A stretch of 64,000 bases of DNA. It comes from Fabrea salina (taxonomy: Eukaryota > Ciliophora > Heterotrichea > Heterotrichida > Fabreidae). Under the pieces are notes generated by a model. The model saw nothing but the letters and a program-made list of their open reading frames with translations, had not been told where the DNA came from and made no database searches. Below, piece after piece: positions 30,089-55,158 of the stretch; the first letter of the stretch is position 1; the number at the start of each line of letters is the position of its first letter. Location of the stretch: positions 186,001 to 250,000 of the forward strand of contig JALIHJ010000029.1 of assembly GCA_022984795.1 (NCBI GenBank), given 5' to 3'. A program made the position numbers and the translations under genes.

Positions 30089-31588
30089 ATGCTGGCAAGT
30101 GATAACATCTTGGTGTTTTTGGGAACCTCGGAAATCTGCAAACTCTACTTAGTGGACAAACAGCACTGCTCTGTGTTGACTCAGAAAAAAGCTATAAAGC
30201 AAAGTATTTGGAGGGGAGACTTAGAACCAAGCATGAGGTCCAAGTTCTGGATCCACGGATTGCCGCTTTACAGAGTACAGCAAGAAACCAAAAAGTGTCT
30301 GGGAGTCAACAGCAACCCTTATGAGTACATCCATTCACAAGTTGAACTTAGTTCAGGCCTTTCTAAAGTGAACGAAGAAATAACTAAGGACCTTACTAGG
30401 ACAGCACTAGTTTCAAAAGACTCCAAAGCCCAAGAACACCTGCGCAGAGTTCTGTTGGGCATAGCTTATGTGAAGCCCAGCATTGGCTACTGCCAAGGCA
30501 TGAACTTCTTAGGGGCAGTTATTCTTAGGTTAGTTAGGAACGAAGAAGTGGCTTTTTGGGTGTTTTTAGGAATGATTAAGAAGTTCGACATGGAAAACAT
30601 GTTTGTGCCAGGAGTTCCAGACATTGCTTTGCGGGAGCATCAGTTCAACTACTACATTGAAAACATGCTTCCTAACCTCTACGCACACTTCCGCAAAATA
30701 GGAGTGCGGAGTGGGTTCTTTATTTCTAGGTGGTACATGACTTTGTACTCGGTGTACTTGCCTTTAGAAACAGTGTTTAGAGTGTGGGACTGCTTTTTCT
30801 TAGACGGCTGGAAAACCATAGTTAAGATAGGAGTGGGCATCCTCAAAGAGAACAAAAACAAACTACTTATCCTTGACTTAGAAGACGTCTCCAACTTGTT
30901 GATGGTACTTCTGAGGGAAACCACTCACGACTACAAACAACTACTTTCTAAAGCCAGCCAACTTAATATCAGCAACAAAGAACTCAAAAGAATCGAGAAC
31001 GACTACTACTCCCAACAAGCCCAACTGAAACTTAAAGCTATAGAAAACACACACTCCTTCACAGACAGAGAAATAGAAGCTCTTAGGTGGGCCAAAGCAG
31101 AAAGTTCTGTGTTTGACTGCTCCACCAAAGAGTGCCTCGAAACCTTCCAAAAAAAGATCGAAAAACTCCACGAAGAACTTGAAACCACCAACAACCACTA
31201 CTTAAGCATTGGAATGGAAATACTTAAACTCCAAAAAGAACTCCAAACTTTGCACGAAAAAAAAGCTATGTACGAAAAGCACCTTAAACAAATGCAAAAA
31301 CACGCTAAGAAAAACAAAAACTTCTTTTCAAAACTTAAAAAAAGCTTTTCTAGTTCCCAAGTTAAGTCTAACCAAATAGGAAAACAAGACATTTTTGTCT
31401 ACCAAACCAAGTTGAACTCCATCCAAGAAGAACTTAAAGAACTCCAAACCCAGTTAGAAGACAAAAACCAAGTGTACAAAGACGCCAAAAAACGAGCTGA
31501 AGACATTAAAGAAAAAAAACTAAACTATTCACAGCAACTCTGCGAGTTCGTTGAAAACTATAAGCAAAAAGTAAATAAACCCCTATAA
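30089..31588 (+). CDS. TBC-domain Rab GTPase-activating protein
   Basis: 499 aa. The TBC domain spans about 35-285. It starts with the RGD-type IWRGDLEPSMRSKFW block and has the arginine finger in ITKDLTR (Arg104) and the glutamine finger in GYCQGMNFL (Gln136), so it should be catalytically competent. A typical RVWDCFFLDGWK block follows. Residues about 290-499 form long coiled coils (KIEKLHEELETTNNH, QEELKELQTQLEDKN). It would stimulate GTP hydrolysis by a Rab in membrane traffic or ciliary transport. Its stop TAA is separated from the next ATG by a single base. Confidence 0.92.
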   Translation: MLASDNILVFLGTSEICKLYLVDKQHCSVLTQKKAIKQSIWRGDLEPSMRSKFWIHGLPLYRVQQETKKCLGVNSNPYEYIHSQVELSSGLSKVNEEITKDLTRTALVSKDSKAQEHLRRVLLGIAYVKPSIGYCQGMNFLGAVILRLVRNEEVAFWVFLGMIKKFDMENMFVPGVPDIALREHQFNYYIENMLPNLYAHFRKIGVRSGFFISRWYMTLYSVYLPLETVFRVWDCFFLDGWKTIVKIGVGILKENKNKLLILDLEDVSNLLMVLLRETTHDYKQLLSKASQLNISNKELKRIENDYYSQQAQLKLKAIENTHSFTDREIEALRWAKAESSVFDCSTKECLETFQKKIEKLHEELETTNNHYLSIGMEILKLQKELQTLHEKKAMYEKHLKQMQKHAKKNKNFFSKLKKSFSSSQVKSNQIGKQDIFVYQTKLNSIQEELKELQTQLEDKNQVYKDAKKRAEDIKEKKLNYSQQLCEFVENYKQKVNKPL

Positions 31589-31589
31589 T

Positions 31590-34500
31590 ATGTTATTGGC
31601 AACTGTTCTTCTGCTGTTTAAGCACTGCTTTTGCTCAGAAATAATACCTGAGTCAACCACTCCCATCAAGATCCTTTGGAACAATCTAGGGGAACTAACT
31701 CCTTACACTTTCCACTTCAAACTTTCCACCGAAATCCTGTCCCAACCTAAACTCTCAATTACTTTCCCTTCTCAGTACCAAAGCGGCTTGGGCATGGGTA
31801 CTTGTTCTGCCTCTGAAACTTTTACTGGAGCCACTGTTCCCTGCTTGGTCTCAGGCAGAGTAGTCACTTTTGAGTTCCAGTCTTTAAAGCGGACAATCTA
31901 CTCTCTGGAGCTAAAAGGAGTCCAGAACCCTTCTGACAGTGGAGGCACTGGAATGTTTGAACTCAGGTCCTGGAGTCACTCAACTCTTGTAGACAGCAAC
32001 TTACTTTTTGGGTCTTTGGGAATTAGTGGTCCACCTGATTCCCTGGAAGTTTCTGTCCAAGTTGAAGGAGCTAACTTAGCCAACTACTCGCCCAAGCACA
32101 AGTTCGGTGTAGAAATGCCTGAATACTACTCAGAGGGCACCTGGCTAAGAGTAGTTTACCCTCAGTCCTTCCAAATTCCAGACCAAGTTAAATGCTTTGT
32201 GCAAGAGTGGCAGAGTTGGATTGACTGCGCAAAGTACAAAGAAACTAGTTACTTGCACCTAACTCCAAACAAAGCAATCTTCCCAGGAAGCTACTCAATA
32301 GAAGTTTATGGAGTCCTGAACCCCTCAACATCAGTTTCCTCGTCCTCAGTCTACTTTGAAGTTATGAGAGCAAACACCTTCACTGTTTTAGCAAAGAACT
32401 CTCAAGTAGAACTACCTAGTGTAGACCCAGGACCACTTTCCCAAACTGAAGTAACAGCTGACCTGCTTATGCAAAATGCCCCTGCTGAGTACAGCATTTC
32501 TTTTGTGCCCTACAACTACATCCCAGAAGGAGGAAGCCTTTCAATAGAGTTCCCTTCTGAGTACAACGGTGTCCTTCCAAACACTTGTCTTGCTTACTCT
32601 GGACTCACTGCTTCGAACAACTACAACTTAGTTACTTGCACTTCTTCAGGCAACTCAGTTACTTTCAGCAACTTCAAAGAAGTCAACCAGCAGTACATCA
32701 CAGTTAAGGTAAAGGTCTACAACCCTTCTTCTCCAGGAGAAACCAACCAGCTCACCATTGCAACCTTCACTCCTTCAGGAGACCTTATTGACAAAGCCCT
32801 GAATGCAGGTTCTGCAACTATTTCTTCTATTCAGTACAGCGAAGGTTTCTCTGTAAACATGCTTCTTCCCAAAGCAGACAACCCCATCGGAAACTACGGA
32901 CCTATAGACTTATTTCTGCACCCCCGAAATCCTCTTTCCTGTGGAAACTCTGCAACCTACCTGGACATTGAACTCGAATTGCCTAGTTCAGTAGAAGTCC
33001 AAACAGGCGAGCTTTATTGCACCTTTGGGAGTGTTGTGGCTGAAAGTTGCACTTACACAACCTCTCCTAAAAAAGTAAGTATTCGCACTCCACAGCAAAC
33101 CCAGTGCTGTCCTTTGGCAATCAAAATCACAACTGTAGGGACTTCTCCGGAAGGCTTTAGGATTCCAAGCACTAGTTACGGAGAGCACACTTTCAAACTA
33201 AAAGTCTTCGACAACACTGCAACCCAAACTGAAGCAGCCCAGTATGTGTACAGAACCAAGCCAGCTTCCTTTAACACTCTAGATATAGACTACCTGCACC
33301 ATACAAGAGACAACTGGAACGTCATCAGACTAACTCTAGACAACTCTGTGGAAATTCCTGCTGACGGAGTGCTTGAGTTTGAGTTTGTGACTAAAGACCA
33401 CAGCTTCCCCAGAGACCTAGGCTGGAACTTGTTATCCTTCCAAACAGAAAGCTTTGCTTGCATCTACAGTAGCACTTGGCCTGATGACCCCACCAATCGC
33501 ATTGAGTGCCAAATTACTGCAGGAACAACCGACGACTCTGCTTTTGTCAGAGTTAAAAACTTCCAAAGCAATGTAGCTGCAGGCACTCAGCGCTGGGTTA
33601 CTCTTCCTAAGGTTAAAAACGCTCCTTACGCAGGCTTTACGCCTAAAATTCACGTAAGAACTAAAGACAACTCCAACACTGTTTTGGAAGAAGGAAGTTA
33701 TGATTTGCCTGCGTTGGAGGAATTCAGTGTGAGTGCTAACTCTGCAAGCGTAACTTCCAGCAGCAACTCAGTAGATGACTCAAACGTGGAAGTAGACGTA
33801 AGCTTAACTATGAGCAGCACTCTGCAAGACACTGGAGAAGTTTACATAATGTTTCCTCTAGGTTACAAGTGGACTTTTGCTCCTCAAGGCACTGGGATTT
33901 CAAACTGCGCTTCCAACACCCTAGAAGGAGGAACCTCTAAGTACACAGTGTTTACTCATGTCAAAACTGCAGGCGTGCTTTACAAACAAAGTTCAGGAGA
34001 CTCTGTTGCTTCGCCCTTACAAACTTGCTTTAAAATCGAAAAGCAGTCTCTTTATGACCAAATTCCCCAAATAGAAATACTAGTTGTGGCTGACAAAGAA
34101 GTAAAGGAGCACTACTTAGTCACTCATGCCTCAATTAGTTCCAGTTCACCTGCTGCCACTCTCACAGGCGTGCATGAGAAAGTAGATGCTTACAACATTG
34201 ACAACACTAACCTGTGGACATTCAGCATAACCACTGGCCAAAGAATCACAGCTGGGGGGTCTATTCAACTGCATCTTCCCAAAACTCACTTCAGCAGTAT
34301 AAGCAGTGAGTGCTACAAAGTAGTTACGTCTGGTGTTTCGTGTAGAGGAGAAAACGACTACGACTCCAACTACCATCGACTAGTTCTTTGGGGCTTTGTA
34401 ACTGGAGATGAGTACAGTGCTGGGGGAAGTATTGAAGTATGGTTCCATGCCACTGCTGGCAGTCTAGCCTCAAATGCAATACTTGAAGTCTTTACTCAGG

Positions 34501-37500
34501 ACGAAGACCTCAACACTGACAAAAAAATAGAGTCTGGACAGATAACAATTGCCTTAGCAGACTTTCCTTACCCTAAGTTCATCCAGATAAACAACTTCAC
34601 CTCTCCTTTAGTTGAAGCTTACAAGTCAACACCTTCAACTACAGAATACGGACCTCTTAAGTTTTACATGAAACCCAACAACTACTACCCAGAAACCACC
34701 ACTCTTTACAACACCAAAGTAAAAGTTACTTTTCCCCATAAGTCAGGAACTAGGTACTTTAAGATGAACCCCTCTGGCAACTTAGAGTGCAGAATGAAAC
34801 TTAAAAATGACCCTAGAGAAAAGGGTTACATGGGACGTGCTTGTTCCTTTACTCAGGGAACCCCTGATATTGTAGAGTTCTACACTCCAAATGAACTCAG
34901 CATTGACCCTTCAAACCTTTATGAAATAGAACTAACCACTGTTGGAGCTCCAGACCCTTCAGAAAATGGCTTTGAGTACCCAGACACTGAAGGCTACTAC
35001 AGGTTCATAGTAGAGCTAAACAAAAACGAAGGCGCACAACAAGAACAAGCCGAACCGTTTATTTACGTGATGGAAAACAGAATGAGTAATGTCTACACTA
35101 CTTCAGAGCACATAGGTGCAGGGCTCTTCAACATTATGAGGTTCCACTTTGAAGTAGGCAACTCCTTGCCTGAAAGTGGGCACTCAACCACTCCTGGAAG
35201 GATTTGGCTAGAGTTTCCTTACGACAGGTCTGGGTCAGGTGAAGGCTGGGAACACGACTTAGGCACTGGACTGAATGACGGCGACCAAATAGACTGCTTC
35301 AGGTACTCTTCTCAGTTCTCTGGAACTCCTAACTACTTAATAGGGTCAGATGAACTCAAGTGCTATTTAAGACACGGGTATAATGACTACGCACGCATTG
35401 AGATTTCCCACTTCGACTCAATTGCTGCAAACGACGTGTTCGACTTTTACATTGCTGGAATCAAAAATCCCTCTGCGAGTATATACGACTTTTCAGTGCA
35501 GATCAGAACTGTTTACGAAGACTTAAATGATTTAGTCGAGCCTAAGTGGGTCACAGTCAGCAGAAAAGTAAACAAGTACATTGACACGACTCAAAGCTTA
35601 ACAACTAATACAGGCAAAACGCCTGGACCAGCCCAACTAGAGTACAATAGAATTTCAGATCCCACTCGCTTTGCGCCTTTAGTAGACCCTGTAACACTGA
35701 GTTTGAACATTGAAAACAGCCAAGAAGTCACAGCTTTAAGTGACATTATTTGGCTAAAGATCCCTACAAGCATCAAACTACCCTACAACTCCCAGGAAAC
35801 CATTACACTTCAACTAGTGGAAGGAGGAGGGAGTTCTTGCTCTGTAACTTGGCCTAACTTTGAAATCTGGCCTTTGCTAGGCTTTGTCAAAATTAAACCA
35901 TGCGCAGACATTCCAGCTAAAACCTACCCAGGCGACACCCCCAACCAAGTCAAGATCCACCCTGTATACTTAAACTCTTGGCCAAGTGGAACTATTCAGT
36001 ACGAAACTTACATTCTAACAGACAGAAGAGCCAGTATGGTAAAAACAAGTACTTTGAACTGGGGCTACTACACACCCAGTGGAACCTGCACAGTGCAAAG
36101 AGCCCGCACTCAGGGCTACGGAGAGTATTCAACTCAAGAAACTTACCACTTTAGGTTCTCTTGCTCAAGCGCAGTGCCTCAGAACGGGGAATATGTTATT
36201 ATGCTGCCTGACGAATTTTCCAATGGAAGCATTGATGGAGCCAGTTGTGTTTTCGGAAGCGACTCTGACGTAGACTCAGGAGTCTCAGCAGCCTGTTCAG
36301 TACTGCGGAACAATGCTTTAAGTATCAGAGGGTTTAACACAGACATAGCAGCTGGGTCCTTAGTAGACTTAAAAGTTAGCATTACCAACCCACCCCAAGG
36401 AACTTTGTCTCAACCCCCACAATGCTTACTGGATTACCATAGCTACCTACACCACTACTAGTGACACTCAGGGTTCTTACCAACTCATAGACGTAGCTAA
36501 AGAAGTAGACTACTGCCACCTAACTTTGAGTTCCAGCATTGCTATAAGGGTTCCTGATTTAGAACAAGACAAACACTATGTATTTTACCGAGGAGTGAGG
36601 CCCTTAGTTTTCCCTGGAATTGCACCCATTGTGTTTGAACTAGAGTCGAGCACTAAAATTGACAAAGAAATTGGCTTAATCATTGTGTCTACCCTGGACA
36701 GCATTTCTATACCTAATAACGGCTGGATAAGGTGTTTGTGGAAAATAGGAACAAGCGAGCACTTAGCACACGACTGCGTCTTCAGTTCAGCGCCTCCCAA
36801 CCAAATTTTAATGTATGCTCCGACTAACCACGATATCCCTGCCAATACTAAGTACGAAGTCTATATTACTTCTCTGTGCTCAGACGGCAGGTACGAAGGC
36901 ATCAGTTTTGACGATAACTTAGTTAGGTACAGAATGGACGTTGGAGTCTATGCTACTGGAATTCCTTTGACGAGCAAGGAAAGAAGGTACCTCAACCAGG
37001 TGGCAGAGCCCTTTAGACTCATGAATATAGACGCCAACCAGTGGACTGAAAACACCTTTACCCGCATAGTAGTTAGTTTAGGAGTAAACACAACCCCTAT
37101 ACCAGCCTCCAACACCAGAATAGTAATTGAGTTTCCTACTCCGCTGTTTGCAGACGATTTGGGGTTGGGAGTTCCTGACAACTCCAGAATAGGGTGTTCA
37201 GGTCAGGATGACATGGACTCGAGTATAGAGTGCTACCTTGCTTTGGGAACTGGCAGTCAAAACATTCCTGCTAAGGTTGTTATTAAGGGTTACACTGCAC
37301 TTAACTCCAACTCAGAAACCTACACAGTCCACCTACCAAAAGTGCATTTGCCCTCTACAGGAGGAGACGACAAACAAGTAGACATCACTGCCTATGCACT
37401 AGACATTTCTTCAGGCTGGCCTGGAACCTTTATTTACTTCAGACAAGTTAAGAATGCTTTCAGAATCAAAACCAACACTCCTACAAGTTCTACTGCCTCT

Positions 37501-40500
37501 GCTGCTCCAACAGCAAGTGACTACACTGTTTCAAATACAGCCACTTACACCTTTGTTGTTGACTGCACTCTTGCTTCAGGGGACTACTACGTTATAAAGT
37601 TTCCTGACAAAATTTCAATATCTTCCACTCCTGACTGTGGAGCCGTCACTTGCTACTACTACTCAATTCCCAACATGCTCATTCTCCATGCCACTGGAAA
37701 CATAAACTCTGTTTCAGTGAGCCCTATAAAAAACCCAACTGAGCACCTAGACCCAGACGAGTACCTTGAGTTCACTGGGTACCACTGGTCAGGCAAAGAA
37801 CTTCTTGAAGTATTTGACTATCCCACACTCTCAAACTCCTTTGGAACCTTTACGCCACTCACTGCTTCAGTAACCATTCCTTACAAACCCGGAGGAAACC
37901 TCTACAAAGACGACTACCTAGAGTACTACTTAAGCTTTACCTCCGGAAGAACAGTTCCATCAGCAGGCAGAATCAAAATAGCCCTTCCGTCTGAGTACCC
38001 AGACTTCCCTGAAAGTGCCTGCTATAACCTTTACGAGGGGCTTAAGTCAGATGTGAAAGGACAAATTACTTGCTCGCTTTCTGGCAAAGAAGCTATCATA
38101 CAGGGCTTCGAAGAAATTGTGGAAGGAGACGTAGGAGTCTTTAGGCTTTACGTCCACCACCCCTCCTCTGCACTCACTACCACTTCAGGAATCAAGGTTT
38201 CTACCTTTGAAACCTCAGACACCTCTTCAGGCAACGAACTCCAGGGACCAGTTGAAACAAGCACCTTCACAATTACTTCCACACAAGCCCCTAGCTACTA
38301 CAGCGTTCCTAGACAATACTTGAAGCCAGTGTTTGTAGAAGAAAGTCAGTACGCGCCTCTGGAACTAGACATTTCTGGCTTTGGAACCTTTGTAAAAGAC
38401 AAGGGCTTTTTAAAGATCACTCTAGACAGCAACTTTGGAAGTCCACCAGCAGGTTCTGAGTTGGTTTGCCTTTGGGAAAACAAAAGAACTAGGTGTTCTT
38501 ATGCCTCTGATGTCTTTACTGTTTTCGCGCCCTACGACTCAAACTGGTCAACATACCCTGCCAAAATAGCCATCACTACCACTAACTCTGACTCAGTTGA
38601 CCAGGTTGGAATACAGTATCCCAGCTCAGCTGGTGAGTACCAAGTATTTGTGCAGGGGGATGTTGATGACGACAGCACCTTTGAAAAAGAAGCTATTGAC
38701 TACGTCCACGTGTGGCCTTCTTCAAAGCTAACTTCGTTTTCAGTAGAACCTTCTCACTACACAGCCAAGGCAACCAACCTTTTCAAGTTTAACATTGGGC
38801 CTTCAACTAACATTCCCCAAAACGGGTATGTGAGAGTTTACTTCAGAACCAAAGACCACTGGGGACACACTATGTTTTCAGACGACTTAGGAACAGGACT
38901 CAGCCACGGAGACTACATTCCTTGCCAAAAGGAACCCGGAGACGCTCAATTGAACCCTTTTGTGGGAAACTCTGTGAAATGCAAACTCTACCACGGCAAC
39001 TCCCACTCTGGCAAGCCATCAGTAGTAGAGATGACTAATTTCCAAGCCATCTCTGGGGCATTCTCCTTTGTAGTTTGGGGAGTCAAGAACCCACCCAACA
39101 CTTTAGCGGATGCCATTAACGTAGACTTTTGGGCACTGACTCTAGACGACACTTACTCAGAACTAGACTACTTCCACCTTAACCATGTATTCACTGTAAA
39201 GGACCCAATAGCCTCAGACCCTGGAACTCCTTCTTCGCCCAATGATGAACCCACTACATCTGGAAGTGTAGGCTCTGCTATAGCACTTAGTATTCCTTTG
39301 ATGGACAACACCAAAGCAATAGTTGCTTCAACGGTTTACTTGCTGGAATTTCCCCAAAGTATTCCTTTGACCGGAGTTTCAAGCATCACTGGAGCCACTG
39401 GAAAGATCTACGAAGTCTTAAATATCATGCAAGTTACAGGTGGGCCTACTGGGTCTGCAGGGTCTCACCCAGCAATCTCCTTTACAACCAACCAAATAAT
39501 TCCTCAACAATGGAGTTCCCCAGTAATAGTTTGCCACCAGTGGGAAAACAACCTGTCAGTAAGGGACTCCAACTCCTACTCCGGAGTAGCTAGCCTTAGT
39601 CTGCCTAGTTTTTCAAGTGTGTCTTTTAGCTCTCCAGACAAGGAAAACCAAATAGCAAGAAGTACCCTGGACTTCACAACATCTGTAGAAATTCCTAGTG
39701 GAGGCCTTATTGAAGTTACTTACCCCAACGATTACAGCATCCACGCAGCAGATTGCGAGCTAACCCAAGTAAGCACTAACTTTGTTTGCAGCATTTCAGG
39801 GAATATGGCTGAAATAAGTGTGCTCCAAAGCATTTCAGACTCTACTGTCCTTCAAGTGGGAATATACTTGCGTGCCAAAGCAGATACATCAGACACCTTA
39901 AAAGTCAAGTCTTTTGCTGACTCGGCCAAGTCCATTGCTCTGGAAGCCCACACACTCACTCCTTCTTCAATAAACGCTAACATTAAGTGGCCTCTTTTAC
40001 TATCAGCACAACACCAGTCAATACTTCAACAAACTGCAGTTGCTGGAGAACACTCCCAAATCAGGTTCAAGTTCAAGTCTTCACTTACTGTTTCTGGCGC
40101 AACCAACCAATTCATCAAAGTCACCCTTTCCACAGCCTTTGCTTCTAAGTCCAGCAATGCAAAGATTTACTGCACTGTAGACAATGATTCAGTGCCCTGT
40201 GAAGAAGTTACTTCCAACAAGGTGTTTAAGGTGTATGCCAACCACCAAAGCTCTATAACTGCCAATTCCTGGCACGAATTAGTTATATACACTCATTCAG
40301 CAGACTCTGACGAAAACGGGTTTGTGCAGCCTTCCAGCACTTCTAACTCAATCACAGTAGAAGTCACTGACAACTCAAGCACCCAAACACAAACTTTAGA
40401 CCTTCCAGTTCCTTCGTCTGTGCTTGCAAACTTAAAAGTGGAACCTCTCCACAGAACAGCTGGGAAACTCAACGTACTGACCTTTACCTTCAAAACTTCG

Positions 40501-43500
40501 AAGGCAGTGGACTTTAACTCAGGTGACTACTTTGCAATAGAGTTTCCTTTAGAGGATTACCAAGGCAATAGCTTATTCGAAGAAGACCTGCTAACTGGAA
40601 AAGTTACAGGCGAAAGAATCGACTGCAAAGGAGAAACTACGTTCAGCAATGCCAAGTGCACACTAGTTAAGGGATACAACACCTATAAAACTCCTGCTAG
40701 AATCAAAATAGAAGACTCAGGCAATCACGCAGCTGGAACTACTTTTAAAGTCTCGATCCCCAAAATAGCCAACCCAGGTTCACACGGAACAAGTGTAAAC
40801 GTGAACTTCAGAGTGTACCATGCTGACAGCTCTGACTTAGTTAAACAGGAAAGAACAGTTGAGTATGCCTTTGTTTCTTTGGCTTCAAGTGCAACAACTG
40901 GGTCTTGCTCTGCACCTACTCTAAGCAGTTACAACACTGGAGAAGGCAGCATAACCATGTCTCTTGATTGTTGCTCTAGCAATGACTTAGTTGCACAAGA
41001 CTCCTTGATTATTGAAATTCCTGAAAACTACCACATGCCTAGTTCCCTTACTCGGACTGGGGGCTTTGACTCAATTACTATTTATCAGTCTGCAAGGTGG
41101 GTTAAACTAAGCACTTCCAGTGGCGAAAGCTGCAACTCAGGAAGTGTCAGCATTAACTTGGCAGCATTCACAAACCCCTCAGTAACAGTCAATGCTAACT
41201 CAATCACTTTAAAAGCCTATGTGGTCCACAACTCAGAAATGATACGAACTGTAACTTATAGCCCCATAGCTACCAAGATCGAACCAAGTAAAACTCCTAC
41301 TACGGTTACCATCAATACATGGCAACTGGTTGACAGCAACATTCCAGACATTTTGACTTATGCTAAACTCAGTTTTAGCTCTAGTGAAGATATTCCTAGT
41401 GGAGGAACAATCCAAATACAACTAACCCATTCTGGCACTCTAAAGTCTGACTCTTACTACTTTGGTCCAATTGAAGGCCAAAGCACAGGGCTAGGGAGTT
41501 ACTACACTCTTAGTTTTTCAGGAAGCACTTATACTATTGCAGACTTCAACACTGTGTCTGGAGGAACTGCTATCAAACTTAAGATTCCAGTGAATAACCC
41601 ACCTAATGGAGGAAATTTAAGAGTGGATGTAACTATCTACGACCAGTATTCAAGGTCTTTGGGTACAGCTCAAAGCACTGCGAGTGCATCTGGTACTTAT
41701 TACACTGTGAGTAACTCGATTTCATCTTTTATGCGTCTTAACTCCTTAGGTGGATCAAGAGAACTTTCTTTTGACTTGTACCTTAATCTAGGCACTTCAA
41801 TATCCTATTACAGTTACTTGTACGTGAAGTTCCCCTTTATAGAAGCCATTAGTAGTGGCTGTACTGATACATCAGCTTCAATCGAAGGAGACACTTGCGA
41901 AAGTGGCTCTGCAACTTACTGTAATTCAGCAATAGTAACTACTTCAGAAGAAATTAGATTTGGATTAGTTAGTAGTTTAGGATCAAATACTTACAAAATA
42001 AGTTTTTCTGGCTGCAACAAGCTGATCATGGACGTTTCAAAAGCTGGGCCTACTTACTATGATGTTTTGTTTGCATATTCTTCTGGAGGAAGTGGAGTGT
42101 TTCACAGGTCTTACATCTACATGCCCTCTTCAACTAGTTCAGTGTCTTCCTGGGAGCAACTGTCAAACAACCGCAATGAAAGGTCAGTTTTAATAGCCAA
42201 TGGATACTCAGGGTCAGGTGAAGGTGTGATGATTGAGTTCGAAAGAGAAATAAGCAATCCAACTTGGACAAGTGACTTAGGAACTGGAGTATCTAACCTA
42301 GAAAGTGTAAGGGCCCTGGTTGAGAGTTCAGGCACGAAGATGGAAAAGTGCTTCCTCAGAACTAGTTCCTACACTTACAAGTCTGCTTTGTTCTGTGCAA
42401 TTGGTTCAGGATCTAGCCATGACATTTACTTGCCCCAACTTATAAACCCAAGCTCTTCTAATGGACGCCTGTCAGTCATGACCTTTTCATTTAGCTCCTC
42501 CCAACTCTCAGGTTTTTCCTCCCAGTCCTTTAACTTCGCATCTGGGTCTGTGACTTCCTCTAGCGGAAGCATCTCAGTAGACAACTCAGAAGTCCAAGCA
42601 AGTGCTAACTGGGACTTTTCAAGTGTTTTTAACTCTGGTTCAAGTGTGAAGGTGCTTATTACTTTTGAAAACCATCTAAGCCAAATAGACTTGTCTGGAG
42701 TTGCTGACTCCGGCCGAAAGGTCATGCCTGAGTCCAGAATGATTCTGTGCACTGTAGGGGGGTCAACTAGTTTAACAGTGCCCATAAAGAACCCCTACCA
42801 CACAGGAACGTTCCAACTTGAAGTGCATTCTTTCGAAAGCAACTCACTAACCCAGTCAAAAGCAGTATCACAAACAATCACTGCAGCTAGTATGCAAAGC
42901 ATTTCGCTTTCAAGTAGAAGTTACGACAGAAAAGAAAACCAAGACTCAATTCTGGACATTACGCTTCAGTTGGCAAAAGATGCCCTTGCTGGGGCTACTG
43001 TTGAGCTTGTTTTCAGCAGTAGCTACTTCAGTAACATAGACTGTTCACAGTGCACTACTGACCTGCCAAACCTAAACTCTGCCAACCCTGTGACCTTTTC
43101 AGTAGCTGGAACCCACAAACTCATTTTAACTTCGATGGGCGACATAACTGCAGGCACTTACTTTATCAATAATATTAGGGCTTACTACTCTAAAAGTGGG
43201 TCTACTTCAATATCTGCAGATGTTTATGTAAGTGCCTCTAAAGAGATCGAATCAGGCTCCCAGTCGCTGTCAATTACTTCTGCATTAACTGACAACTACC
43301 TGGTTAAGTTCCCTAGAGCTTCACTGACTTCAGGCTACAGGATCCTTAAAGCTTCTGAGTTTTCGGAACTCGTTTTCTACTACTCTCCTTCAGTTAATGT
43401 TCCTTTGGGAACCAGCAACTACATTAAAGTTACTACAAATGACTGGCAAAAAGGAACAGCTAACTACCTGTGCTTGATAGACGGAAACGTTTGCTCTTGC

Positions 43501-46500
43501 ACTAGAAGTTCCGACGAAATAACTATAACTCCCCATGCTGCCTTAAGTTCGGGAACTGTGTACACTGTAAAGATCACTGCTAACAACGGAGAACAGGACG
43601 GACTCGGGCTGCCTTCTTCAGATGGCTCCCACACAATCACGGTAGAAACCTACGTAACCAACTCCCAAAAGGACCTTGGCGAACTAGTGATTCCTATATA
43701 CCCACTTTTCTCAACCTTTAGTGTAGAGCCTAACGTTTCAGGCTTCGCAGATGAATCCCTTATAGAAATAACCCTGACTCTTACTACTGCTATTTCAGGT
43801 GCTAACCAAGGCGCTTTAGTAGTTGAGTTTCCGCTTTACAACCTTGACTCAGGTTCATCCGAGTACACTACTTCACTCGGAACTTCCAATCACCAAAACA
43901 CTTACTACGGGTGCGAAATCTTTAGTACTTCAGGAACTAAGTTCTACCCTAGAAGCCAAGTGGAGTGCAAAATAGTGGTGGGCTACAACTACAACAACAA
44001 AAACCTTCAGTCTACCAAGCTAGTGGTTTCTTTAGGGGCTTCAGACAGCATTGCTTCAAGTTCCTCCATAAAGATAGGAGTTCCAGGAGTTGTCTTGCCT
44101 TCCAACTACCGAGGAACTGACTTTGTGGTTTACTCCAGAGAAATATCTGTTTCTGGTGAAGAAATCAAAGACTACTTTGTATACATGAGAGCCCAAGTTG
44201 CCCACGACGACAACACTCTTTCAACTGTTAACAAAGACTTTCCCAGCATCTCCTCAAACTCCATCAGAGAGACCACAGACTACGCCTTTAGTTTGCAGCC
44301 CAGCGACTTGATAAGCACTAGTGACAGGCTTGTCTTTGTTTACAACCCCAACTACTTGTCAGTCAGTCTTTCTTCAGGGGATGCTTCTCCAGGGTACTCT
44401 GCCTTGTACTTCTACCCTAAAGCAGGCTGGATAGTTTACACTCCAGCATCTGGAATTTCTAACTCTAGCCCTACAACAATCACCTTATCCAATCTAGTCA
44501 ACCCTCCTTTTGTGCCTTCTTCTTCAGCACACTACACCTTTGAAGCCAGACACTGGGCTAGTTTCACAAGTGCCTACAAAAGAGGAATTTGGAAGTTCAA
44601 GTATGTGTTTGGGCAAAACATACCCTCTCCCGCTTACTCCAAAGGAACCATCACTCCTTCTTCCTCTGAGTTTGGGTGTTTTAACTGCGGAGGAAGCATG
44701 ACTACTGTTTTAGCTGAACAAGAACCTATGTACAAGCTTACTTTTGACTACAACTTGGACTTGGACCAAGGAGCTATAATTGAAGTGGTTTTTCCTAACT
44801 CCTCCGAAGAGTACCAGTCAGTTTCCCAAGAGTGCGAAGCTTCTTCAGCTGGGTTTAGTTCCAGCAGTACTGTTTCCTGCATCAAAACTGCTTCTTTGAC
44901 GTACAGAGTTTCGAACTTTGGAACATACACCAAGAACAACGACATTTCTATACTAGCAAAAGCCAAAAACCCTCCTAAGCAACACTCCCCCACTTCCAAC
45001 TTTGAAATCAACATTTACTACGACTCAGGACTTTCAAACATAGGCAAAGACACTTCTAAGAGTTTCACAGTCACTGGACCCAGTTCTGTTCCCCAAGGAA
45101 CAGCCAAAACTCATTTGCCCTTTACCAGCGACTTAGTACCTGCACGCACTGGAGACTATGCCCCTTTGAAATTTACCTTCAAGCCTCTAACCAGCATTCC
45201 CCAAAACACTGGCACAGTGAAGTTAACTGTTCCATCAGGAAGTTTCCAAAAGTACTCAGGCACAGACTTGCTGTGCAAGTTCATTGATCCCACAAACAAC
45301 TACAAAGAACACATTGCTAAAGACTGCACTTACTCCTCAGACGTGTACACCTTAACCGCACCAGTCGACACCCAAATATCCAATAGCCACAACTGGATAG
45401 CCGAAATATTTACCTCTGGAAAAGCAACTAACGGACTGCTTTACCCAAGCAACGGACTGGTTAATTTGCATGGAAACCTAAACAACAACCAGGAATTTGA
45501 CATCCACTACAACGTAATGCCCTCAGCCATGACTAAAGCTAAGGTGTACGGATGGTCCCACACTGAAGGATTCCAAAACATATTTGAAGTGAAATTTGAA
45601 ACCCCCCTTGGAACCTATACCTCAGGAACTAGAATTGAAGTAGAGTTTAGCACTGAACAGTTTCTGGCTGACTTAGGACTTGGACTAAGTGACGGACAGG
45701 AAGTTTACTGCACTTCAGACTTAAGTATTGAAAGTGGAAAAGCTCTAAAGTGCACTCTGCACGTTGGTTCAAGCACCTCAGCTTTGCCTTACAGACCCTA
45801 CAAAGCCCTAGTAAGGGTCCACAACCAAGACTCCAACACTGGCTACAAAAACCTTAAACTCTTTAACATAGTCAATCCTTCCTCTGCTGACTTGCACGTG
45901 TCTGTTAAACTCAAGGTATTTACAGTAGATGCTAACTTAGAAGAAGTCACGACTAAAGAAGAGGTTATTCAACATGTTATAGGAACCCAAACTGACCAGT
46001 CTTCCACGGACAACGAAGACTCTTACCTAAATACCATTTCAAACAGAACAGTGTATGCCAGCACTGTGAACTTTGACTTGGACGTAAACTTAGCCTCAGA
46101 AACCCTAAAGGAGTCAGACATCATAATCTGGCATTTCCCCAAAGACCTAAGAAGCGGCTTTACAGTCCAAGAGTCTTCCAGCAACAACAACCAAATCAAA
46201 AAAGCCCTTCTCACAGACGGAATAATAGTTTCCTCTCCTCCCTCTGGAGATTCTTACTCTGGAGCAAAAACCTTCCACTTCGACAACTACGACAACCCCA
46301 AATACCGTCCTTTAAGCAATCCATTAGCTAAGGCTTATGTCATCATCAACAAGCACTTGTTCAAAAAAGTCGTTTACGACCAAAACTCCCTAAACCACAA
46401 ATTGGTTTCAGTAACTCAAACTGTACACGCAGGAGACAGCAGCAATGCAGGCTACAAACAAGGTAGAATTGACTTTAACTTCCAGTTCAGCACTCCAGTA

Positions 46501-49500
46501 GACATGCCCGGAGGTTCAACTATTGAGTTAGAGTTCCCTGCAGGGTTCACTCTAGACAACTACTGCCAAGTAACTTCAACTAACTTGGCTGCTTCTTCTG
46601 GAGACTGGGTGCCTTGCCAAAAGTCAGGAACTACCTTTTTGATAACAGGCTACAATAGCTACACCCAAAACAACCAGGTAAAAGTAAGAGGCTGGGTTAA
46701 TCTTCCTAACTCAGTATCCCAAACACTTTACATTAGGTACTACTGGGACTATCCCAGCTTGCTTACTTCCCAAACTTCAGTGAGTTACAGCTTAAACGAC
46801 ATGCAAGCTATTTCTAGCATTTCTATGGGGCCTTACATCTACACTGCTCCTGACATACCTGTGTTAGTTACTGAGGTTTCTGAAATGAGCTTTAGTCTCA
46901 GCGTACCCTCAACCCTGACCAAAAAACTAGGCTATGTCAAAGTTGAGTTCCCAAGTTCTTCTTGGAGTGTTTCAGGCACTTTAGTTTGTGTTTGGGAAAG
47001 TTCTGGAAATTCCTGGCAGGCTCATGAGTGCACTGAAGCTAGCGGGAAAATTACTGTACTTGCTCCTGAGTACAACGACATAACTCCAGCCACCTGGAAA
47101 GTTGTAATCAGAGGCTTGCAAGGAACTGACCTTGACGGAGTTACCTTCCCAGCCAACCCTTACAGGTACCAAATCAACACTTACTACTGCACAGACGGAA
47201 CCTCAAGCGAAACCCTTATTTCAGAAGAGAAGACCAAAGTTCCTTACGAGTACCTTACAGAGCAGTTTGCATACACTTTTAACAGCATAAAGGACGACTT
47301 TATGCTTCTGGAAGTTTCAATAACTCCTAAAGACGACTACAAAAAGGGAACCCCTGTTAACCCTAGCAAAAGCTACATGACTTTGCACTTCCCAACTAAA
47401 CAAAACTCACTTAACTACTTTTCAGACGACCTAGGTTCAGGCTATTCAGACAAGCAAGAAATTCCCTGCAACGCTCTTCAAAGAATGAGTAACCTCAAGT
47501 GTGGTTTAGCCCACGGTGACAACTCGGAAGGAACTGACACCCTTATTTACCTTTACAACTACTCTGACGACTTAAACACCAACCCTAATTCTTTCATCAT
47601 TCCCAAACTCTTCAACCCTTCAGACTCTGACCGAATAGTTTCTTTCTCACTAGAAATTTGGATGGACGACTCCTCCAACAACTGGTACTTAAAAGTCCAC
47701 AAAGAATTCAAGTACCTTTACGACACTATTACTAAAACTGTGACTGATAACTCAATTACTATGAACCACAACAACCGAAACGCAGGACAAATTGGCAGTG
47801 TAAGTTTTCAAATGGACCTAGCCATTAACTTTGTGGACAACTACGACGAAAAGCTGCTTTGGGAACTTGCTGAGTCAGAGCCTAAGTGGACTCAAGATCT
47901 GTGTACATCTTCCACCCACACTTGCAGTAACCAACTCAACTCTCACTACTTTGTTTTGCATCCAGGGGGCTCTATTTCAGACAACGACTTTATCACAATC
48001 CAGAACGTTCCTAACTACGACAACCCTCACTACTCCCAAACATGGACAGTTTACGCCTACAAAGACTACGAACTCCAAAACAAAATGACTGCAGCTTTTT
48101 CTGTGCCATTCGATGTGCCCAGCCCCACTGACTATTTGGATATAGAATGGAGGAACCTCAATGATGACTTGCCCAACCCCTTAGTTAACAGAAAAGACCA
48201 CTACACCTTTAAGTTCAGGTTATCAGACACCATTCCTAGCGATGGGCATATAGAAATTAGCTTTCCAAGTACCTACACTATTGAAAACTATTGCAAAGTA
48301 CTCCACACTCTTCCTGGGCATAAGTGCCAAAAAACTAACTCGTACACGGCAAAATGCGTTTACTCCAGTGACCTCCACCCTACTATGAACGAAGTCCAAG
48401 TGTCTTGCAAGGCAACTAATCCCTCATCAGCTGGAGTTGTTTCTGGGTTTAGAGTAGTTGGTTTCGACAGCTCAGGAGGGACCATCAAAGATATTTCATC
48501 TGTAGATACATTCACTATTGGCAATGCTCACACTGAACTTGCAGAATCATACATAGGTTGGCCTGAAAGAACCCGTGTTAAAGCACGAATTGGCAAGTTC
48601 ACTGACATTTGGCTCTGGCTTAAAATCCAAAGATCTGATGTTAGTTTCGATTATGGGAACCATATCAGTTTGGAACTTCCTTCAGAAGTTAGCTTAGCGG
48701 CTGGAGGAGTGCTTGAATGCACTTGGCATGACCAGTCCAACACAGTACCTGCGGCCCCGGTAAAAGACGATGGGTCTAGTTTGAGCACCAGTAACCTTTT
48801 GACAGTTCCTATAACTTCCCAAATAGGTTTGAATCCTGGCACTTTGTACACTATTTACTGCTACACTCGGGATGCAACTGCTGGTTTGGAGTCTAACAGC
48901 TTCGAGTTTTATGGAGATGCTAGGTACCAGTCTTGGTACTTCAAAGTGGAAAAGTCTTCTCAAGGCGAGTCTGCTAAGGTTCTAAAAGAAGTGTACCCTG
49001 AATCTTTTAGTGCTATAGACTTAACTCTTTACTCCTTTACTATAGGCAAGTGGAACATCATGGACCTTAGCTTCAACCCAACCGAAAACGTTCCAGTCGG
49101 AGGAGGCATTGTTGTAGAGGTGCCCACTCACAACGAACTTGATCAAGTATTTGAAGAAGACTTAGGACTTGGACTAAGTCCCCTAGAAACCCAAAAACAA
49201 ATAGCATGCTCTGTGCAGTCTGGGTTTGGAGGGCCAACAGGCGCATCAAGCTCAGTAAAGTGCTTCATGGAAAGAGGAAGAACTCAGTCAGTGAACAACC
49301 CAGCTGTCATTAGAATCTACGGCCACACTTCACCTATAACTAGTGGAAGCACTCATGAAATTAGAATTGCCAAGTTTAAAAACCCACCTAAAAAACAGTC
49401 AAGCATCTTAAACGAAAACTTAGTAGCTAACTTTAAGGTTTGGACTTATAAACCACAAAGCTCAACTTACGCAGAAGACATGGCCAGACAAAACTTAGAC

Positions 49501-52500
49501 ACTTTGTGGTACAAGTTCAAAAGGTCAGGACAAAGTGCACTCAAAGATAGCAACCCCTACATAGAAAACCCTGCTCCTCAACCCACTACCTCTGTTTCTG
49601 AAACCTTTACAGAGTTTAGTAGTCCTTTAAATGTTCAGTTCAGCCTACAAAACTCAATAGACGACTCAACTGGCTTTATCATCTTTGAGTTTGACGATGC
49701 ATTTGCACTGCCTGAAACTGGAACCACAATTGACTGTAATACTCCTAATGACTGCGAAGTTTACAGTGAGTCTCAGTGGGTGTTGTGGAGAACTACTAGT
49801 GCTAGCTCTGCTTCCTTTACAGTTGCACTTCAAAACTCAGGAGACAACTTTAAGTCTGCCAACATGGAGTCTACTAGTGGTTACAGCTTTTCAGTCTACG
49901 TGATTGACGAAGGAGAGTGGAAAGAAGAGCACATGTGCACTGAAATTGCTTCATTCACGGGGGGAACTCTAGGAGTAACTATTACCAACTCCTTCAACTC
50001 ATACCATAGAGAAACCTACGATATCTGGACCATAAGCATTGATCCCGAAAAGGACTCTAGTTTCACCAAAAGAATCGACATATACTTCCCAAGTGAGTTC
50101 CAGTGGGTAAGCGAAACCTGCAAAACTACAGGTTTATCCCAGTTAAATGACTTGCCCATTAGTTGTGTCTCGGATTGCAGTAGTAAGTCTTGCAATAACC
50201 ACATCACAATCACTAACTTTACACCTTCTTCAGCTTCAGCATCTATAAGTGTCGAAGTGGGGGCTAAGTCTCCTAGCAACTCAGGCACAACTTCTAACTT
50301 CAGAATTTACTACTACTCCGAAGAATCCGACACCACTAAAATAGTTGAGAAGTACGAAGGAGGAGCCTTAACTATCAGCAGCATATCTTACCCCGACGAC
50401 TTTTGGGTTGAACTACCTACCCAGAGCATCAGTGACCGAGAAGCAACTATCGAAGAAGACGGAGAAGTTTGGATAAGATTCAGAAGCAGAGTGAGCCTAC
50501 CACCTGAGTCTGGTTGGTACCAAGTAGTTTTTCCGCAAGAGTTTGACATTGAAGACTCAAAGCCTTTCTGCAAAATTGTGCACGGAGACATGCCCTTCGA
50601 CAACTTCCCTGGAAAGTGGCAGGGCAACTACCAGCATACCATTGTTCCAAACTGCAACTATAAAAACAGAGTACTTGATGTTATCTTTCCCGGAAATATA
50701 AACAGAGAGTTCCACGGCATTGAATCTGGAAGGTGCACTTATTTAGTTCTCAGTACTTACGGAAGTGGCTTTAGAGCACCTTTTACACAAGGGTGTTACC
50801 AGCTTGAACTATACGCTAAAGACAGCTCCATAACTATGGAAACTACTTTCCCTGAAGTTTGCATCAAAGGAAAAACCATTGACTCCCTTAGTGTGACTGC
50901 AAGCACTGAAGACACCAGCAAAGAAGCAATCTACGAAATCGAGTTTACTACCGACTACTACATTCCTCCTAGTTACTTGCACTACGAAGGAACTTTTCCA
51001 GGCGAAAAGTCCTACATTGCAGTTAAGTTTGAAACCCACAAGTCCTTTGCTGTGGACTTAGGTGGAAATCAGGATTCAAATGGCAATGTAAACTGCCTAG
51101 GAGTTTCAGGACTGCTTTCAGAACTTACTTGTGTGCTAACCCAAGGCTCAGTTACACCCTCGCCTAAGTTTACCCATGAGCCTGCAGTAGTAACTATTTC
51201 TGGTTACGAAAGCATACCTAAAAATACCCAAGTTAAGTTCCACTTGCCCCTCATTAAGAACCCCTCCACTGACACTTGGTTGCCTCAGTTAGAAGTAGAA
51301 GTCTACAAAGAAAACTTTACGGGACAGAAAGTTTGGATCTATAAAGAAACACCAGTGCTGCTAAATGCAGTGAGTGCCTCCGTAGCTTCTGCAGCTTCTG
51401 ATTTGTGTAGCCCTAGTGACTGCAAGTCCTCAAGTACCTTAGTTCTCCAGAGAACCAATTTGGTTCTTCTTTTCACTGCACAAAGTGCTAACCTGAATGC
51501 TGGCTCTAGAATCATCATTAAGTTTCCCCAGTCTTACCAGCACATTCCCAGTTCAGGCGTAACAGCTTACATAACCAAAAAAGGCCTTACAAACATTGCC
51601 ACTCAAACCTACATTGTAGAAAACATTGAAGTTACCAATTACCCCGGAGCTAGAATGGTTTCACTAACAATTCCCTCCGGAAAGTCTGTTATTCAGAGTG
51701 AACAGTGTGAAATAGGACTGCTGAACTTTGTGAACCCTTCCTACATAGACTCAGGACACTCTATTGAGTATTACTCCATTGACTCATCTAAAAAGGTCAG
51801 AGACCAGTACCAGACTTCAGACATTTTTGGGCTATTTAGTTTAAGTCCAGCCAAGTTCAAGGTAAGTGGTGTGGCTTTTTCGAGTTACCTTTCAGAGTCC
51901 ACAGGCGTCCAAGTCCAGTTAGACTTTAAACCCAAATTTACTTTAGAGCAACAAACTTCTACTTACATCCACTTTCCAAGCGGTTTCCCAGACATAAGCA
52001 CTCTCAGTCCCAAACCAGTTTGTGAAACTAACATCCAGGCAAGCTGTTCTTTCCTTACTAACAAAGTGCTTATAGAGAACTACTCTGAAGTACAATCTGG
52101 AACTTTAATTACACTCAAGGTCTTTGGAGTAGTTAACCCCAGTTCAGGAACTTTTGTTTTCAAAGTTGAAACTCTCAACGCAAACTCCAAACAAGTAGCA
52201 TACACTGAATTTCCGTCAGTGACTATATACGAAGGGCCACTTTCCAGCAGCATAGGGGGTTCAATGACTGTTAACTTTCTGAACGCAGGCGTTTTAGCAG
52301 AGTACAACTTCAGTTTGTTTTCTGGGAAAAGCCTTATTAAAGGAACTCAAGTTAAAGTTACTTTTCCCTACAACTACCGAATTGTGTGGAGAAACCAAGT
52401 TTGTGCAGTGGAAGCAATTACTTACACTTCATGCTCTATCCTTGGAAACACCGTTACTGTGGAGTTGGCTGAAGACTTGCCTAGCTACCATACTTTTGGC

Positions 52501-55149
52501 TTGCTTGTTTCTGGAGTTAAGAACCCACCTCAAATGCTCACAGACCATTTCCAGATTGAGACTCACTACTCTGGACAACTAGTTGACCAACTAGACCCTA
52601 ATGATGACACTTTTAAAGCCAACATAAAAGAAGAACCCAAGACTTTGAAAATAGACTCCTACGAACTAAAACCCAGCAACGAGGCTGAAAAGGGACTTTA
52701 CAGCTTCAGCATTGCAACTTCAACAAGCAGCGTGCACTCAGTTTTCATCAGATTCCCAGAAACTTACGCAGATCACCTACTGCAGCCCAGTGCTAACTTA
52801 ATGTGCTCTGCCTCAGTTAACTTTGAAAAATGTCTATTTGAAGGAAACAGACTAGTTAAGTTCCACAACCTAGCAAGTTTCAGCTATAAACTTGACCTGC
52901 ACATTTATGGAGTAATTAACCCTTTCCAAGGGCAAACGGGTGCTTTTAGCATTTATTTGTTTAACAACCTCCAAAACACCATCACTGAGTACTCACACTC
53001 AGTCACTTTCAAAATTACGGAGGTGCCCAGAATCCTAAACATGACATCCGTGACTACTAGCTCTAGCACTTCACACTCAACTGCAGACTACTACTTTAAC
53101 TTTGAGTGCCAACTTTCAGATGAAGAGCTTTGGGTAGAGTGGCCTGATGAGTACCAGTCTCTTCTAGAAAAGTCCTACTTTTCGTGCTACTTCGGAAACA
53201 GTTCTGCGTTTTTAGACTGCAACCCAGTGGCTAACACAAGGAACACAGTTACTTCCGTAGTAAGCACCAGAAACATTCAGGGAGAAAAGAACCTAAAGTT
53301 GACAGGACTTCCTACTTCTGAAGGCTACACTTCTGACTTTGTGCTGAAGATCTACAGTCAAAAAACACTTAGGTCAAGGTCCTTTGCCAACTTAACTCCA
53401 ACCCCTTTTCTTTACTTTGAAAGCAACACCTACAGAGTCTATGTAAACCAAACTGTTGTTCAAGTATACAGAGGTGCTTACTCTTACCCTGTTAGTGTAG
53501 AACTAGAAAAGCCCTCCTTCGAAGAAATTAAGTTCAAGCCTGTTCCATCAACCCCTCTCTTAGGGTTTTCTCCCCCAGAACTCCTTATGCAGTATGCTAC
53601 AAAAGACAAAGGCACCTTTGTGGTCTATGCTCCAATGAGTCTGAAAACTGGAAACTACTCAGTTACTTGGGAACAAACTCCCACTCTGGACTATCAGCCC
53701 TTGAAAGAAATAACTGTGGAAGTGCTTGACCCTGCACAGGACATAACAGTTTACTGTGAAGAAGTTCCAGAACTGCCTGTATCAGGAACTAGTTTCCCAA
53801 TTAAAGTTTACTTGGATAAACCTTCTTACAACAAACTCACTCTGAACTTTTCTACTGAAAACCCACTCCAAGACAAGTATGTTTTGTTCCAGCCCCAGTC
53901 TCTGAGTTTCGACCAAGGAGACCAAGTAAAGTACTTCACTGTGACTCTTATAGAAGGCGCAGTAAGTGGTAGTATCAAATTGTCCTTAGTAGGGGACTCC
54001 TCTGCCTCCTTTAAACTGTTCAGAAACTTGATCCCCTTTGAAACTATAACTTCCGACCTAACCACTCCAAGGATTCGCTCAGTGAGACTCCACAACATTC
54101 AAAGAACCTCAGCTGAAGTTCTTGTTCAGTCTAGCGACTCAGTTAAAGTTCACTACATGTACTCCAGAAAAGGGACTCCTCCCCCCACTCATTCTATGCT
54201 AAAAAGCGGAGAAGCGCCCTGGAGTGATGTCGAAGTAGTATACGGTACTGCTTGGACTCAAAGCCATGAAACTACCCTGTCTATTGAAAAACTCACTGAC
54301 AACACCGAGTACATACTCTACATCTTGGTAGAGAACAGGTTTGGAGAAGCTTCAGTTGAAGTAAAAGAGTTCCAGTTCAAAACCCTAGTAACTCCTCTGC
54401 CTGCCAAGTTCAGAGTTTACGTTACAAAAGCAACAACTCCGGAAAGAATTTGCACAGCAGTAGCCAAAGCACTTTCTTTGCCAGTAGACTGGGTTCTGCA
54501 CACTGGAAGTGACCCAGAGCTAGGTAGGAGACTTACTCAGGACACAAGCCCTTACTATGAACTTACTTTGTTTGTGGAAAGGTCTTTTGACCTAGACAAA
54601 CCTATACACTTAGTCAAACAACTAGACCACAAAACAAATCTGCTCAAAGAACTGGTTCCTTACTACGACTCTACACACCCACTGTCCGAGCACGCTACTG
54701 AGTACAGTTATTTAAAGCCAGAAATAACAAAAGCCCAAGTGGAGTCTAACGACCAGGGAACACTTCAAGCAAACGTAAGTATAAGTGTGGAAGGAACTGT
54801 GTACGCAGTTGCCCTTCCAGCTTACAAGCAAGCACCTTCTTCTGTGCAGATTAGGGACGGACTTGACAGCAACAACCTTAAAGTTCCTAGGCACTCTCAC
54901 CAAAAGGTTAAGTACGGAGAACCAGCACAACTCAACTTCACAGGGTTGCCAGCCCATGCAGAGTTTGTTTTGTATTTGACTGCTGAAAACGCCCTGCCTG
55001 GGAACCCTCAACTCATTGAAGACGAGTTCACCAAAGAAGTTGGTTTTGTAGTAGGCACCCAACTGGACACTTCTTTCCACTTTGAATTCAAAAACCTCAA
55101 CCACGCCTACTTACTATGTCTTGGCCTTCTCCTTTTAACCTTAACTTAA
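31590..55149 (+). CDS. Giant repetitive extracellular protein, about 7,850 aa
   Basis: The frame covers 23.56 kb with one phase change at the C5 run 36414-36418: removing one C fuses two perfectly open frames, with QPHNAYWITIATY at the join. The N-terminus is a signal peptide (MLLATVLLLFKHCFC). The body is a tandem array of beta-sandwich-like modules of three alternating types. One has (F/L)P..Y....C and ends in NPS/NPP. One ends in Y/FPSS.GEY-like motifs. One carries a DDLGTG motif followed by two cysteines. About 11 super-repeats span 33-51 kb. Downstream are more NP-type modules, an FnIII-like segment (about 54.06-54.39 kb) and a hydrophobic C-terminus (HAYLLCLGLLLLTLT), so it is GPI- or tail-anchored. 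No cytosolic domain is present. It is probably a fibrous coat, adhesion or cortical surface protein. I recognise no described family; if the phase change is real there are two genes. Confidence 0.8.
33400..51070 (+). repeat. Eleven super-repeats marked by the DLG motif
   Basis: A (D/E)DLG(T/L)G..-type motif followed by paired cysteines recurs at about 33.41, 35.25, 37.15, 38.88, 40.58, 42.27, 43.87, 45.67, 47.42, 49.15 and 51.05 kb. Spacing is 1.6-1.9 kb (530-630 aa). Examples are FADDLGLG, FSDDLGTGLSHGD, WTSDLGTG, FEEDLGLGLS and FAVDLGG. Units are conserved in motif order but strongly diverged in sequence, which points to old duplication. A weaker echo (WTQDLCT) lies at 47.89 kb. Confidence 0.85.
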
Positions 55150-55158
55150 CTTACAATT

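What the first reader, a model, noticed from the sequence alone, without database searches (positions are those of the whole stretch)
31590..55149. A 23.5-kb giant surface-protein gene built of eleven beta-sandwich super-repeats
Seen: a signal peptide, about 7,850 codons, a DLG(T/L)G motif recurring every 1.6-1.9 kb, more than twenty NPS/NPP domain ends, and a hydrophobic tail with no cytosolic domain. I know of no named family with this three-module unit. At full extension it would span hundreds of nanometres, suggesting a coat fibre, holdfast/lorica material, mating or adhesion molecule. This is the best candidate for an undescribed system in the window.
Basis: partly seen in the sequence, partly recalled or inferred. 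Interest (0 to 1): 0.82.

Follow-up and report, generated by a model that had tools for sequence, protein, structure and literature searches.

The report
Fifty-domain giant ciliate surface protein
A single-celled organism, probably a ciliate, carries a gene for a very large protein, a chain of fifty similar folded beads that seems to be held on the cell surface by a lipid anchor and whose bead number has stayed fixed while most of its sequence changed.

Summary
One gene (31590-55149) encodes about 7,850 residues: signal-peptide-like start, module array, hydrophobic tail with no cytosolic part. Five homologs of 7,853-7,993 aa are unbroken, so the one-base frame break near 36.41 kb is probably an assembly error. 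The unit is misread: it is ONE Ig-like domain family (~140 aa, 50 copies) arranged as 2 + 11 x (A-B-C-D) + 4 modules, then ~560 residues with FN3-like domains. No Pfam model reaches its cut-off on the modules. Sixteen further loci of this genome carry the module. One group is receptor-like (furin repeats, membrane helices). Another shares the giant's C-terminal region; most end in a GPI-like tail, and three follow a ten-module plan in the order m1-m2-A-B-C-D-m47-m48-m49-m50 (0 of 100,000 permutations as good; one module of one of them was placed by spacing). The giant therefore looks like a ten-module protein whose four-module cassette was multiplied 1 to 11. All 50 modules keep their order down to 33% identity. 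Best explanation: a GPI-anchored extracellular chain, ~0.2 um if extended, acting as a cell-coat element like the Chlamydomonas ciliary-coat protein FMG1B, with different modules and anchor. Function is inferred; the organism is not proven.

The parts
31590..55149 (+). Whole gene for the giant protein (~7,852 aa, ~865 kDa before processing)
   Evidence: unbroken homologs
31590..31667 (+). Signal-peptide-like start and short N-terminal stretch
   Evidence: hydrophobic start by eye in five of the six proteins (P0003 begins later)
31668..32456 (+). N-terminal modules m1 and m2
   Evidence: matched by modules 1-2 of relatives
32457..34172 (+). Cassette 1 (modules A B C D = m3-m6)
34173..36092 (+). 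Cassette 2 (m7-m10; m10 placed by spacing and alignment)
36093..37884 (+). Cassette 3 (m11-m14), contains the frame break
36400..36430 (+). One-base frame break, probably an assembly or sequencing error
   Evidence: frames differ by one; P0001 (93% identical) is unbroken
37885..39612 (+). Cassette 4 (m15-m18; m18 placed by spacing and alignment), the part modelled by AlphaFold2
39613..41322 (+). Cassette 5 (m19-m22)
41323..42909 (+). Cassette 6 (m23-m26; m24 placed by spacing and alignment), the least conserved
42910..44685 (+). Cassette 7 (m27-m30)
44686..46431 (+). Cassette 8 (m31-m34)
46432..48162 (+). Cassette 9 (m35-m38)
48163..49983 (+). Cassette 10 (m39-m42)
49984..51870 (+). Cassette 11 (m43-m46)
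51871..53460 (+). Membrane-proximal modules m47-m50
   Evidence: matched by the last four modules of relatives
53461..55104 (+). C-terminal region: two beta-sandwich domains, an FN3-fold domain (about 54055-54393), a small alpha/beta domain, a second FN3-like domain (about 54718-55062)
55105..55146 (+). Hydrophobic tail ending the protein, GPI-signal-like, with Asn and small residues just before it
   Evidence: GAA1 transamidase subunit in the genome

Best explanation
The gene encodes a secreted, probably GPI-anchored surface protein made of 50 Ig-like modules, most with a Cys pair: a tip of two modules, a stalk of eleven four-module cassettes, a base of four modules, and a membrane-proximal region with FN3-like domains. 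It arose from a ten-module protein, several relatives of which persist in the genome, by multiplication of its one A-B-C-D cassette to eleven. Extended, it would reach about 0.2 micrometre (recalled 4-4.5 nm per Ig domain). Most likely it is a very long element of the cell coat (glycocalyx) that sets the reach of the coat and of its own tip and keeps particles and other surfaces off the membrane, much as FMG1B does on Chlamydomonas cilia. Shown by computation: one gene, 50 modules, four-module period, conserved order and number, Ig-like model, shared ten-module order in relatives. Inferred: disulfides, GPI anchoring, direction of cassette gain, extended shape, coat function.
For: One domain family and four-module period. 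Five unbroken homologs of 7,853-7,993 aa; each of the 50 modules has a counterpart in order in all of them, 106-187 aa long. Same-position modules are reciprocal best for 50 of 50 (P0002) and 46 of 50 (P0005). Cys is the best-kept of 14 residue types tested: 80% kept to P0005 at 33% overall identity; 93 of 123 in all six proteins. Ig-like AlphaFold2 model. Ten-module relatives in the same order: 0 of 100,000 permutations for each of C62, C61 and C18, 6 for C21. GPI-like tails in all six proteins and in five of six full frames that share the C-terminal region; GAA1 present. FMG1B precedent: 34 Ig-like repeats of about 110 aa, ~22% identity, a conserved Cys pair, adhesion-limiting coat (PMC12021028; abstract, passages and sections 8-9 seen).
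Against: No localisation, expression or mutant data. Conservation is not what a uniform spacer predicts: cassettes 1, 4 and 11 (37-53% mean identity to the four distant homologs, by module) are better kept than modules m23-m27 (22-27%), so some cassettes may bind something. FMG1 repeat number varies between related algae, whereas here it is fixed. The GPI signal has almost no polar spacer. One of the six full frames sharing the C-terminal region (C52) ends in membrane helices and a charged tail instead. Five of 50 modules have fewer than two Cys. The coat role is by analogy only.
Confidence: 0.5

Rival explanations
1. A long adhesive stalk: the tip or certain cassettes bind a mate, food particle or substrate, and the many modules carry that site clear of cilia and coat, like the extender of giant bacterial adhesins.
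Confidence: 0.28
2. A ciliary hair like the Chlamydomonas mastigoneme, tethered to a polycystin channel whose gene lies nearby.
For: Best Foldseek hit of cassette 4 by E-value is mastigoneme MST1 (9b4h_A, 1.8e-5). A PKD channel gene (12571-16083) and a REJ + laminin-G gene (2940-8252) lie in the window.
Against: The match is only tandem Ig-like domains (TM-score 0.12). MST1 has a Cys-rich rod and polyproline helix after its Ig-like domains (PMC11015965, passages); none was seen in the giant. Linkage with polycystin was not tested in other genomes.
Confidence: 0.08
3. Several separate genes, or a pseudogene, misread as one.
For: One frame break in this assembly.
Against: Five homologs are single proteins of nearly equal length; Cys and module order are conserved.
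Confidence: 0.02

Closest known systems
FMG1B/FMG1A, Chlamydomonas ciliary coat (PMC12021028)
   Same: Giant chain of tens of Ig-like repeats with low identity and a conserved Cys pair; membrane-held surface protein
   Different: 34 repeats of ~110 aa, a Cys-rich domain, disordered linker and multi-helix membrane domain; repeat number varies between species. Here 50 repeats of ~140 aa in a four-module period, FN3-like base, GPI-like tail, fixed number in six proteins
Ten-module GPI-like relatives of the same genome (C62, C61, C18; C21 less clearly)
   Same: Same modules in the same order, same C-terminal region, same kind of tail
   Different: One cassette instead of eleven; frames of 1,847-2,014 aa
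Module + Cys-rich + membrane-helix proteins of the same genome (C68, C79, C51 and others)
   Same: Same module family
   Different: 5-7 modules by profile in the intact ones, furin-like repeats (Pfam-tested in C68, C79, C51 only), TM-like stretches by hydropathy; no match to the giant's C-terminal profile
Chlamydomonas mastigoneme MST1 (PMC11015965)
   Same: Tandem Ig-like domains in a surface filament protein
   Different: Nine domains, then Cys-rich rod and polyproline helix; polymerises
Giant bacterial Ig-array adhesins (SiiE)
   Same: About 50 Ig-like domains as a long stalk
   Different: Bacterial Ig domains with Ca-binding sites and type I secretion (abstracts in a listing)

Membership tests
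FMG1-type coat protein | Long chain of Ig-like repeats with low mutual identity | tested here: met
   50 modules; 6-25% identity to a reference module; Ig-like model of one cassette
FMG1-type coat protein | One conserved disulfide pair in every repeat | tested here: inconclusive
   Cys pair in the consensus; 28 of 50 modules have exactly two Cys, 17 have more, three have one, two have none
FMG1-type coat protein | Cys-rich domain, disordered linker and multi-helix membrane domain at the C-terminus | tested here: not met
   FN3-like region and one short hydrophobic tail instead
FMG1-type coat protein | Sequence relationship to FMG1 repeats | tested here: inconclusive
   No significant hit in solved-structure sequences; whether FMG1B is among them was not established
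FMG1-type coat protein | Location in the outer coat | not testable with these tools
   no protein data
GPI-anchored protein | N-terminal signal peptide | tested here: inconclusive
   hydrophobic start by eye only
GPI-anchored protein | Short hydrophobic C-terminus, no cytosolic tail, small-residue site before it | tested here: met
   all six proteins and five of six full frames with the same C-terminal region; at most one charged or His residue in the last 15; site judged by eye
GPI-anchored protein | Transamidase in the genome | tested here: met
   GAA1, PF04114, E 9.6e-17, over the cut-off, positions 2-283 of 497
GPI-anchored protein | Lipid attached | not testable with these tools
   needs phospholipase or mass spectrometry
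Mastigoneme MST1 | Growth-factor-receptor Cys-rich rod after the Ig-like domains | tested here: not met
   no such Pfam hit in the parts scanned and no Cys-rich stretch in the C-terminal region
Bacterial Ig-like (Big) domains | Match to a Big-family Pfam model over its cut-off | tested here: not met
   best seen is Big_5 on module m28, 21.9 bits against 23.6; 14.8 bits in the long frame; Big_5 and Big_8 each in 1 of 49 modules at E 1 or better
Fibronectin type III (C-terminal domain) | FN3 fold | tested here: met
Fibronectin type III (C-terminal domain) | Match to the Pfam FN3 model | tested here: not met
   none at E 0.5 or better
Module family of this genome | Profile match to the module | tested here: met
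   16 of 17 fetched loci besides the giant carry it, one of them broken (C23) and one a fragment (C72)

The most novel reading that the evidence does not exclude
The protein is a molecular ruler: selection holds its module number at exactly 50 because its extended length sets a cell-surface distance such as coat thickness, cilium-to-cilium gap or mating-contact spacing, and it was built by multiplying one four-module cassette eleven-fold.
Probability: 0.22. Interest if true: 0.82.

Novelty: new variant of a known kind. Interest (0 to 1): 0.6.

Why it matters
It gives a domain family that no Pfam model covers above cut-off, a clear case of a giant protein made by multiplying a cassette inside a smaller relative, and an array whose number and order stay fixed while up to two thirds of residues change. 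That makes 'why exactly this long?' testable. It also suggests that very long Ig-like coat proteins, described for green-algal cilia, occur in a second protist lineage with another anchor.
Full report
ORGANISM. The window is contig 25, 186001-250000, of an 18.33-Mb genome in 103 contigs. Neighbouring genes look eukaryotic (TBC, HSP70, adaptin, ion channels). The size fits what I recall of Fabrea salina, a heterotrich ciliate; its genome paper I saw only as a reference in other papers. An rRNA check did not complete, and short-intron counts were not informative. So 'heterotrich' is a likely label, not a result.

THE GENE. Two overlapping frames on the plus strand, 31590-36461 and 36373-55149, hold the protein. 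They differ by one frame near 36.41 kb. A database search with residues 1-5000 of the long frame found five homologs: P0001 (7,853 aa, 93% identical), P0002-P0004 (7,977-7,993 aa, 38%) and P0005 (7,957 aa, 32%). All are unbroken. The search admits only proteins 0.55-1.75 times the query's length and scored 887 candidates, so much shorter or longer relatives would not appear, but within that wide range all five fall within 2% of each other. In a full alignment the identities to the window protein are 93.5, 39.4, 39.3, 39.8 and 33.2%.

MODULES. Profiles started from three different parts of the first frame converged on the same family, 45 hits each; a fourth seed found only itself. On the read-through protein a profile finds 47 modules, and 0 or 1 in each of 20 shuffled versions. 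Three more (m10, m18, m24) fill module-sized gaps and align with the homologs, giving 50 of 106-187 residues. Modules share 6-25% identity with a reference module. Layout: 2 N-terminal modules, 11 cassettes of A-B-C-D, 4 C-terminal modules. For the 44 cassette modules the best within-protein partner has the same register in 40 (window protein), 41 (P0002) and 42 (P0005); about 10 are expected. Similarity peaks at lags 4, 8, 12 and 16 and does not fall steadily with distance between cassettes. The DLG motif is a mark of C modules: 9 of 11 in the window protein and 10 of 11 in P0005, but only 6 of 11 in P0003; a like motif occurs in 0-2 of the other 39 modules.

A FROZEN ARRAY. All 50 modules have a counterpart of similar length in all six proteins. 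Same-position modules are reciprocal best matches for 50 of 50 against P0002, 46 of 50 against P0005, and 48 of 50 between P0002 and P0005. In a tree of C modules, 8 of 11 cassettes form same-cassette trios; cassettes 5-7 do not. So the array was most likely complete before these lineages split. Cysteine is the best-kept of 14 residue types tested (80% kept to P0005; 93 of 123 in all six). Conservation is uneven: the modules of cassettes 1, 4 and 11 stand at 37-53% mean identity to the four distant homologs, m1-m2 at 35%, m47-m50 at 28-31%, m23-m27 at 22-27%.

RELATIVES IN THE SAME GENOME. Searches with a cassette, with a relative and with the C-terminal region found further loci. Of 17 loci fetched, 16 carry the module, among them the broken C23 and the fragment C72; C81 gave no hit in frames of 150 aa or more, though a short stretch there resembles C68. 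One group has 5-7 modules in its intact members and TM-like stretches by hydropathy; furin-like repeats over the Pfam cut-off were shown in the three tested (C68; C79 and C51), the others were not Pfam-tested. A second group shares the giant's C-terminal region: C62, C61, C18, C21, C59b, C52 and C72, with best profile scores of 204, 156, 136, 81, 76, 47 and 53 bits. Five of its six full frames end in a GPI-like hydrophobic tail; C52 ends in a charged tail after TM-like stretches.

ORIGIN BY CASSETTE GAIN. By profile C62 and C61 have ten modules and C18 nine plus one module-sized gap. Scored with position profiles of the giant, the ten modules of C62, C61 and C18 are best assigned, in exact order, to m1, m2, A, B, C, D, m47, m48, m49, m50; 0 of 100,000 permutations of labels score as well in each. 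C21 gives 6 of 100,000, but its best assignment is not fully in order. By raw top score 8, 8, 6 and 4 of 10 modules agree. Two furin-type controls gave 756 and 9,530 of 20,000. The giant thus equals the ten-module plan with the A-B-C-D cassette present eleven times. That the single-cassette form is ancestral is parsimony: several relatives have it, only one gene found here has eleven; the C-module tree does not settle it.

ANCHOR. The tails of all six proteins are hydrophobic to the end, with Asn and small residues just before, and the GPI transamidase subunit GAA1 is encoded. Anchoring by GPI is therefore likely but inferred.

WIDER FAMILY. A search with the modules of C68 found P0006 (95%, same type), P0007 (1,619 aa, 11 modules, bacterial-looking to me, untested), P0008, P0009 (Phytophthora fragariae, with laminin-type domains) and P0010 (Cys-rich repeats, ciliate-looking to me). 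No Pfam model was seen to reach its cut-off on the modules.

FUNCTION. The nearest described thing in build is FMG1B of Chlamydomonas cilia: 34 Ig-like repeats of about 110 residues, ~22% identity, a conserved Cys pair, forming an outer coat that limits adhesion (PMC12021028; abstract, passages and sections 8 and 9 seen). The giant plausibly works like it but is not a member: its base and anchor differ, and sequence relationship could not be shown. FMG1 repeat number varies among related algae; here it is the same in six proteins, which hints that exact length or each position matters. An adhesive stalk is the main rival.

Noticed in passing
31588-31590 and 55149-55159: Extreme packing: the TBC gene ends one base before the giant's start codon, and the next open frame starts nine bases after its stop.
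   Followed up: no
2940-8252 and 12571-16083: A laminin-G + REJ protein and a polycystin channel lie within about 13 kb on one strand, a possible polycystin-1/polycystin-2-like pair.
   Followed up: no
L037 (G000:C23:269500-276032): A module relative at a contig end is split over several frames by five stops, so it is a pseudogene or poorly assembled.
   Followed up: partly
L033 (G000:C49:190000-198500): Another module + Cys-rich relative is split between two frames (425 and 2,061 aa or more), perhaps also an assembly frame break.
   Followed up: no
G000:C81:329118-329458 and C83:11765-12114: Short fragments about 70-75% identical to part of the C68 relative, on two contigs, some with a stop inside.
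   Followed up: partly
P0009 (protein database): A Phytophthora fragariae protein of 3,258 aa combines the same modules with laminin-type domains; its first module weakly resembles the biofilm coat protein BslA, below the cut-off.
   Followed up: no
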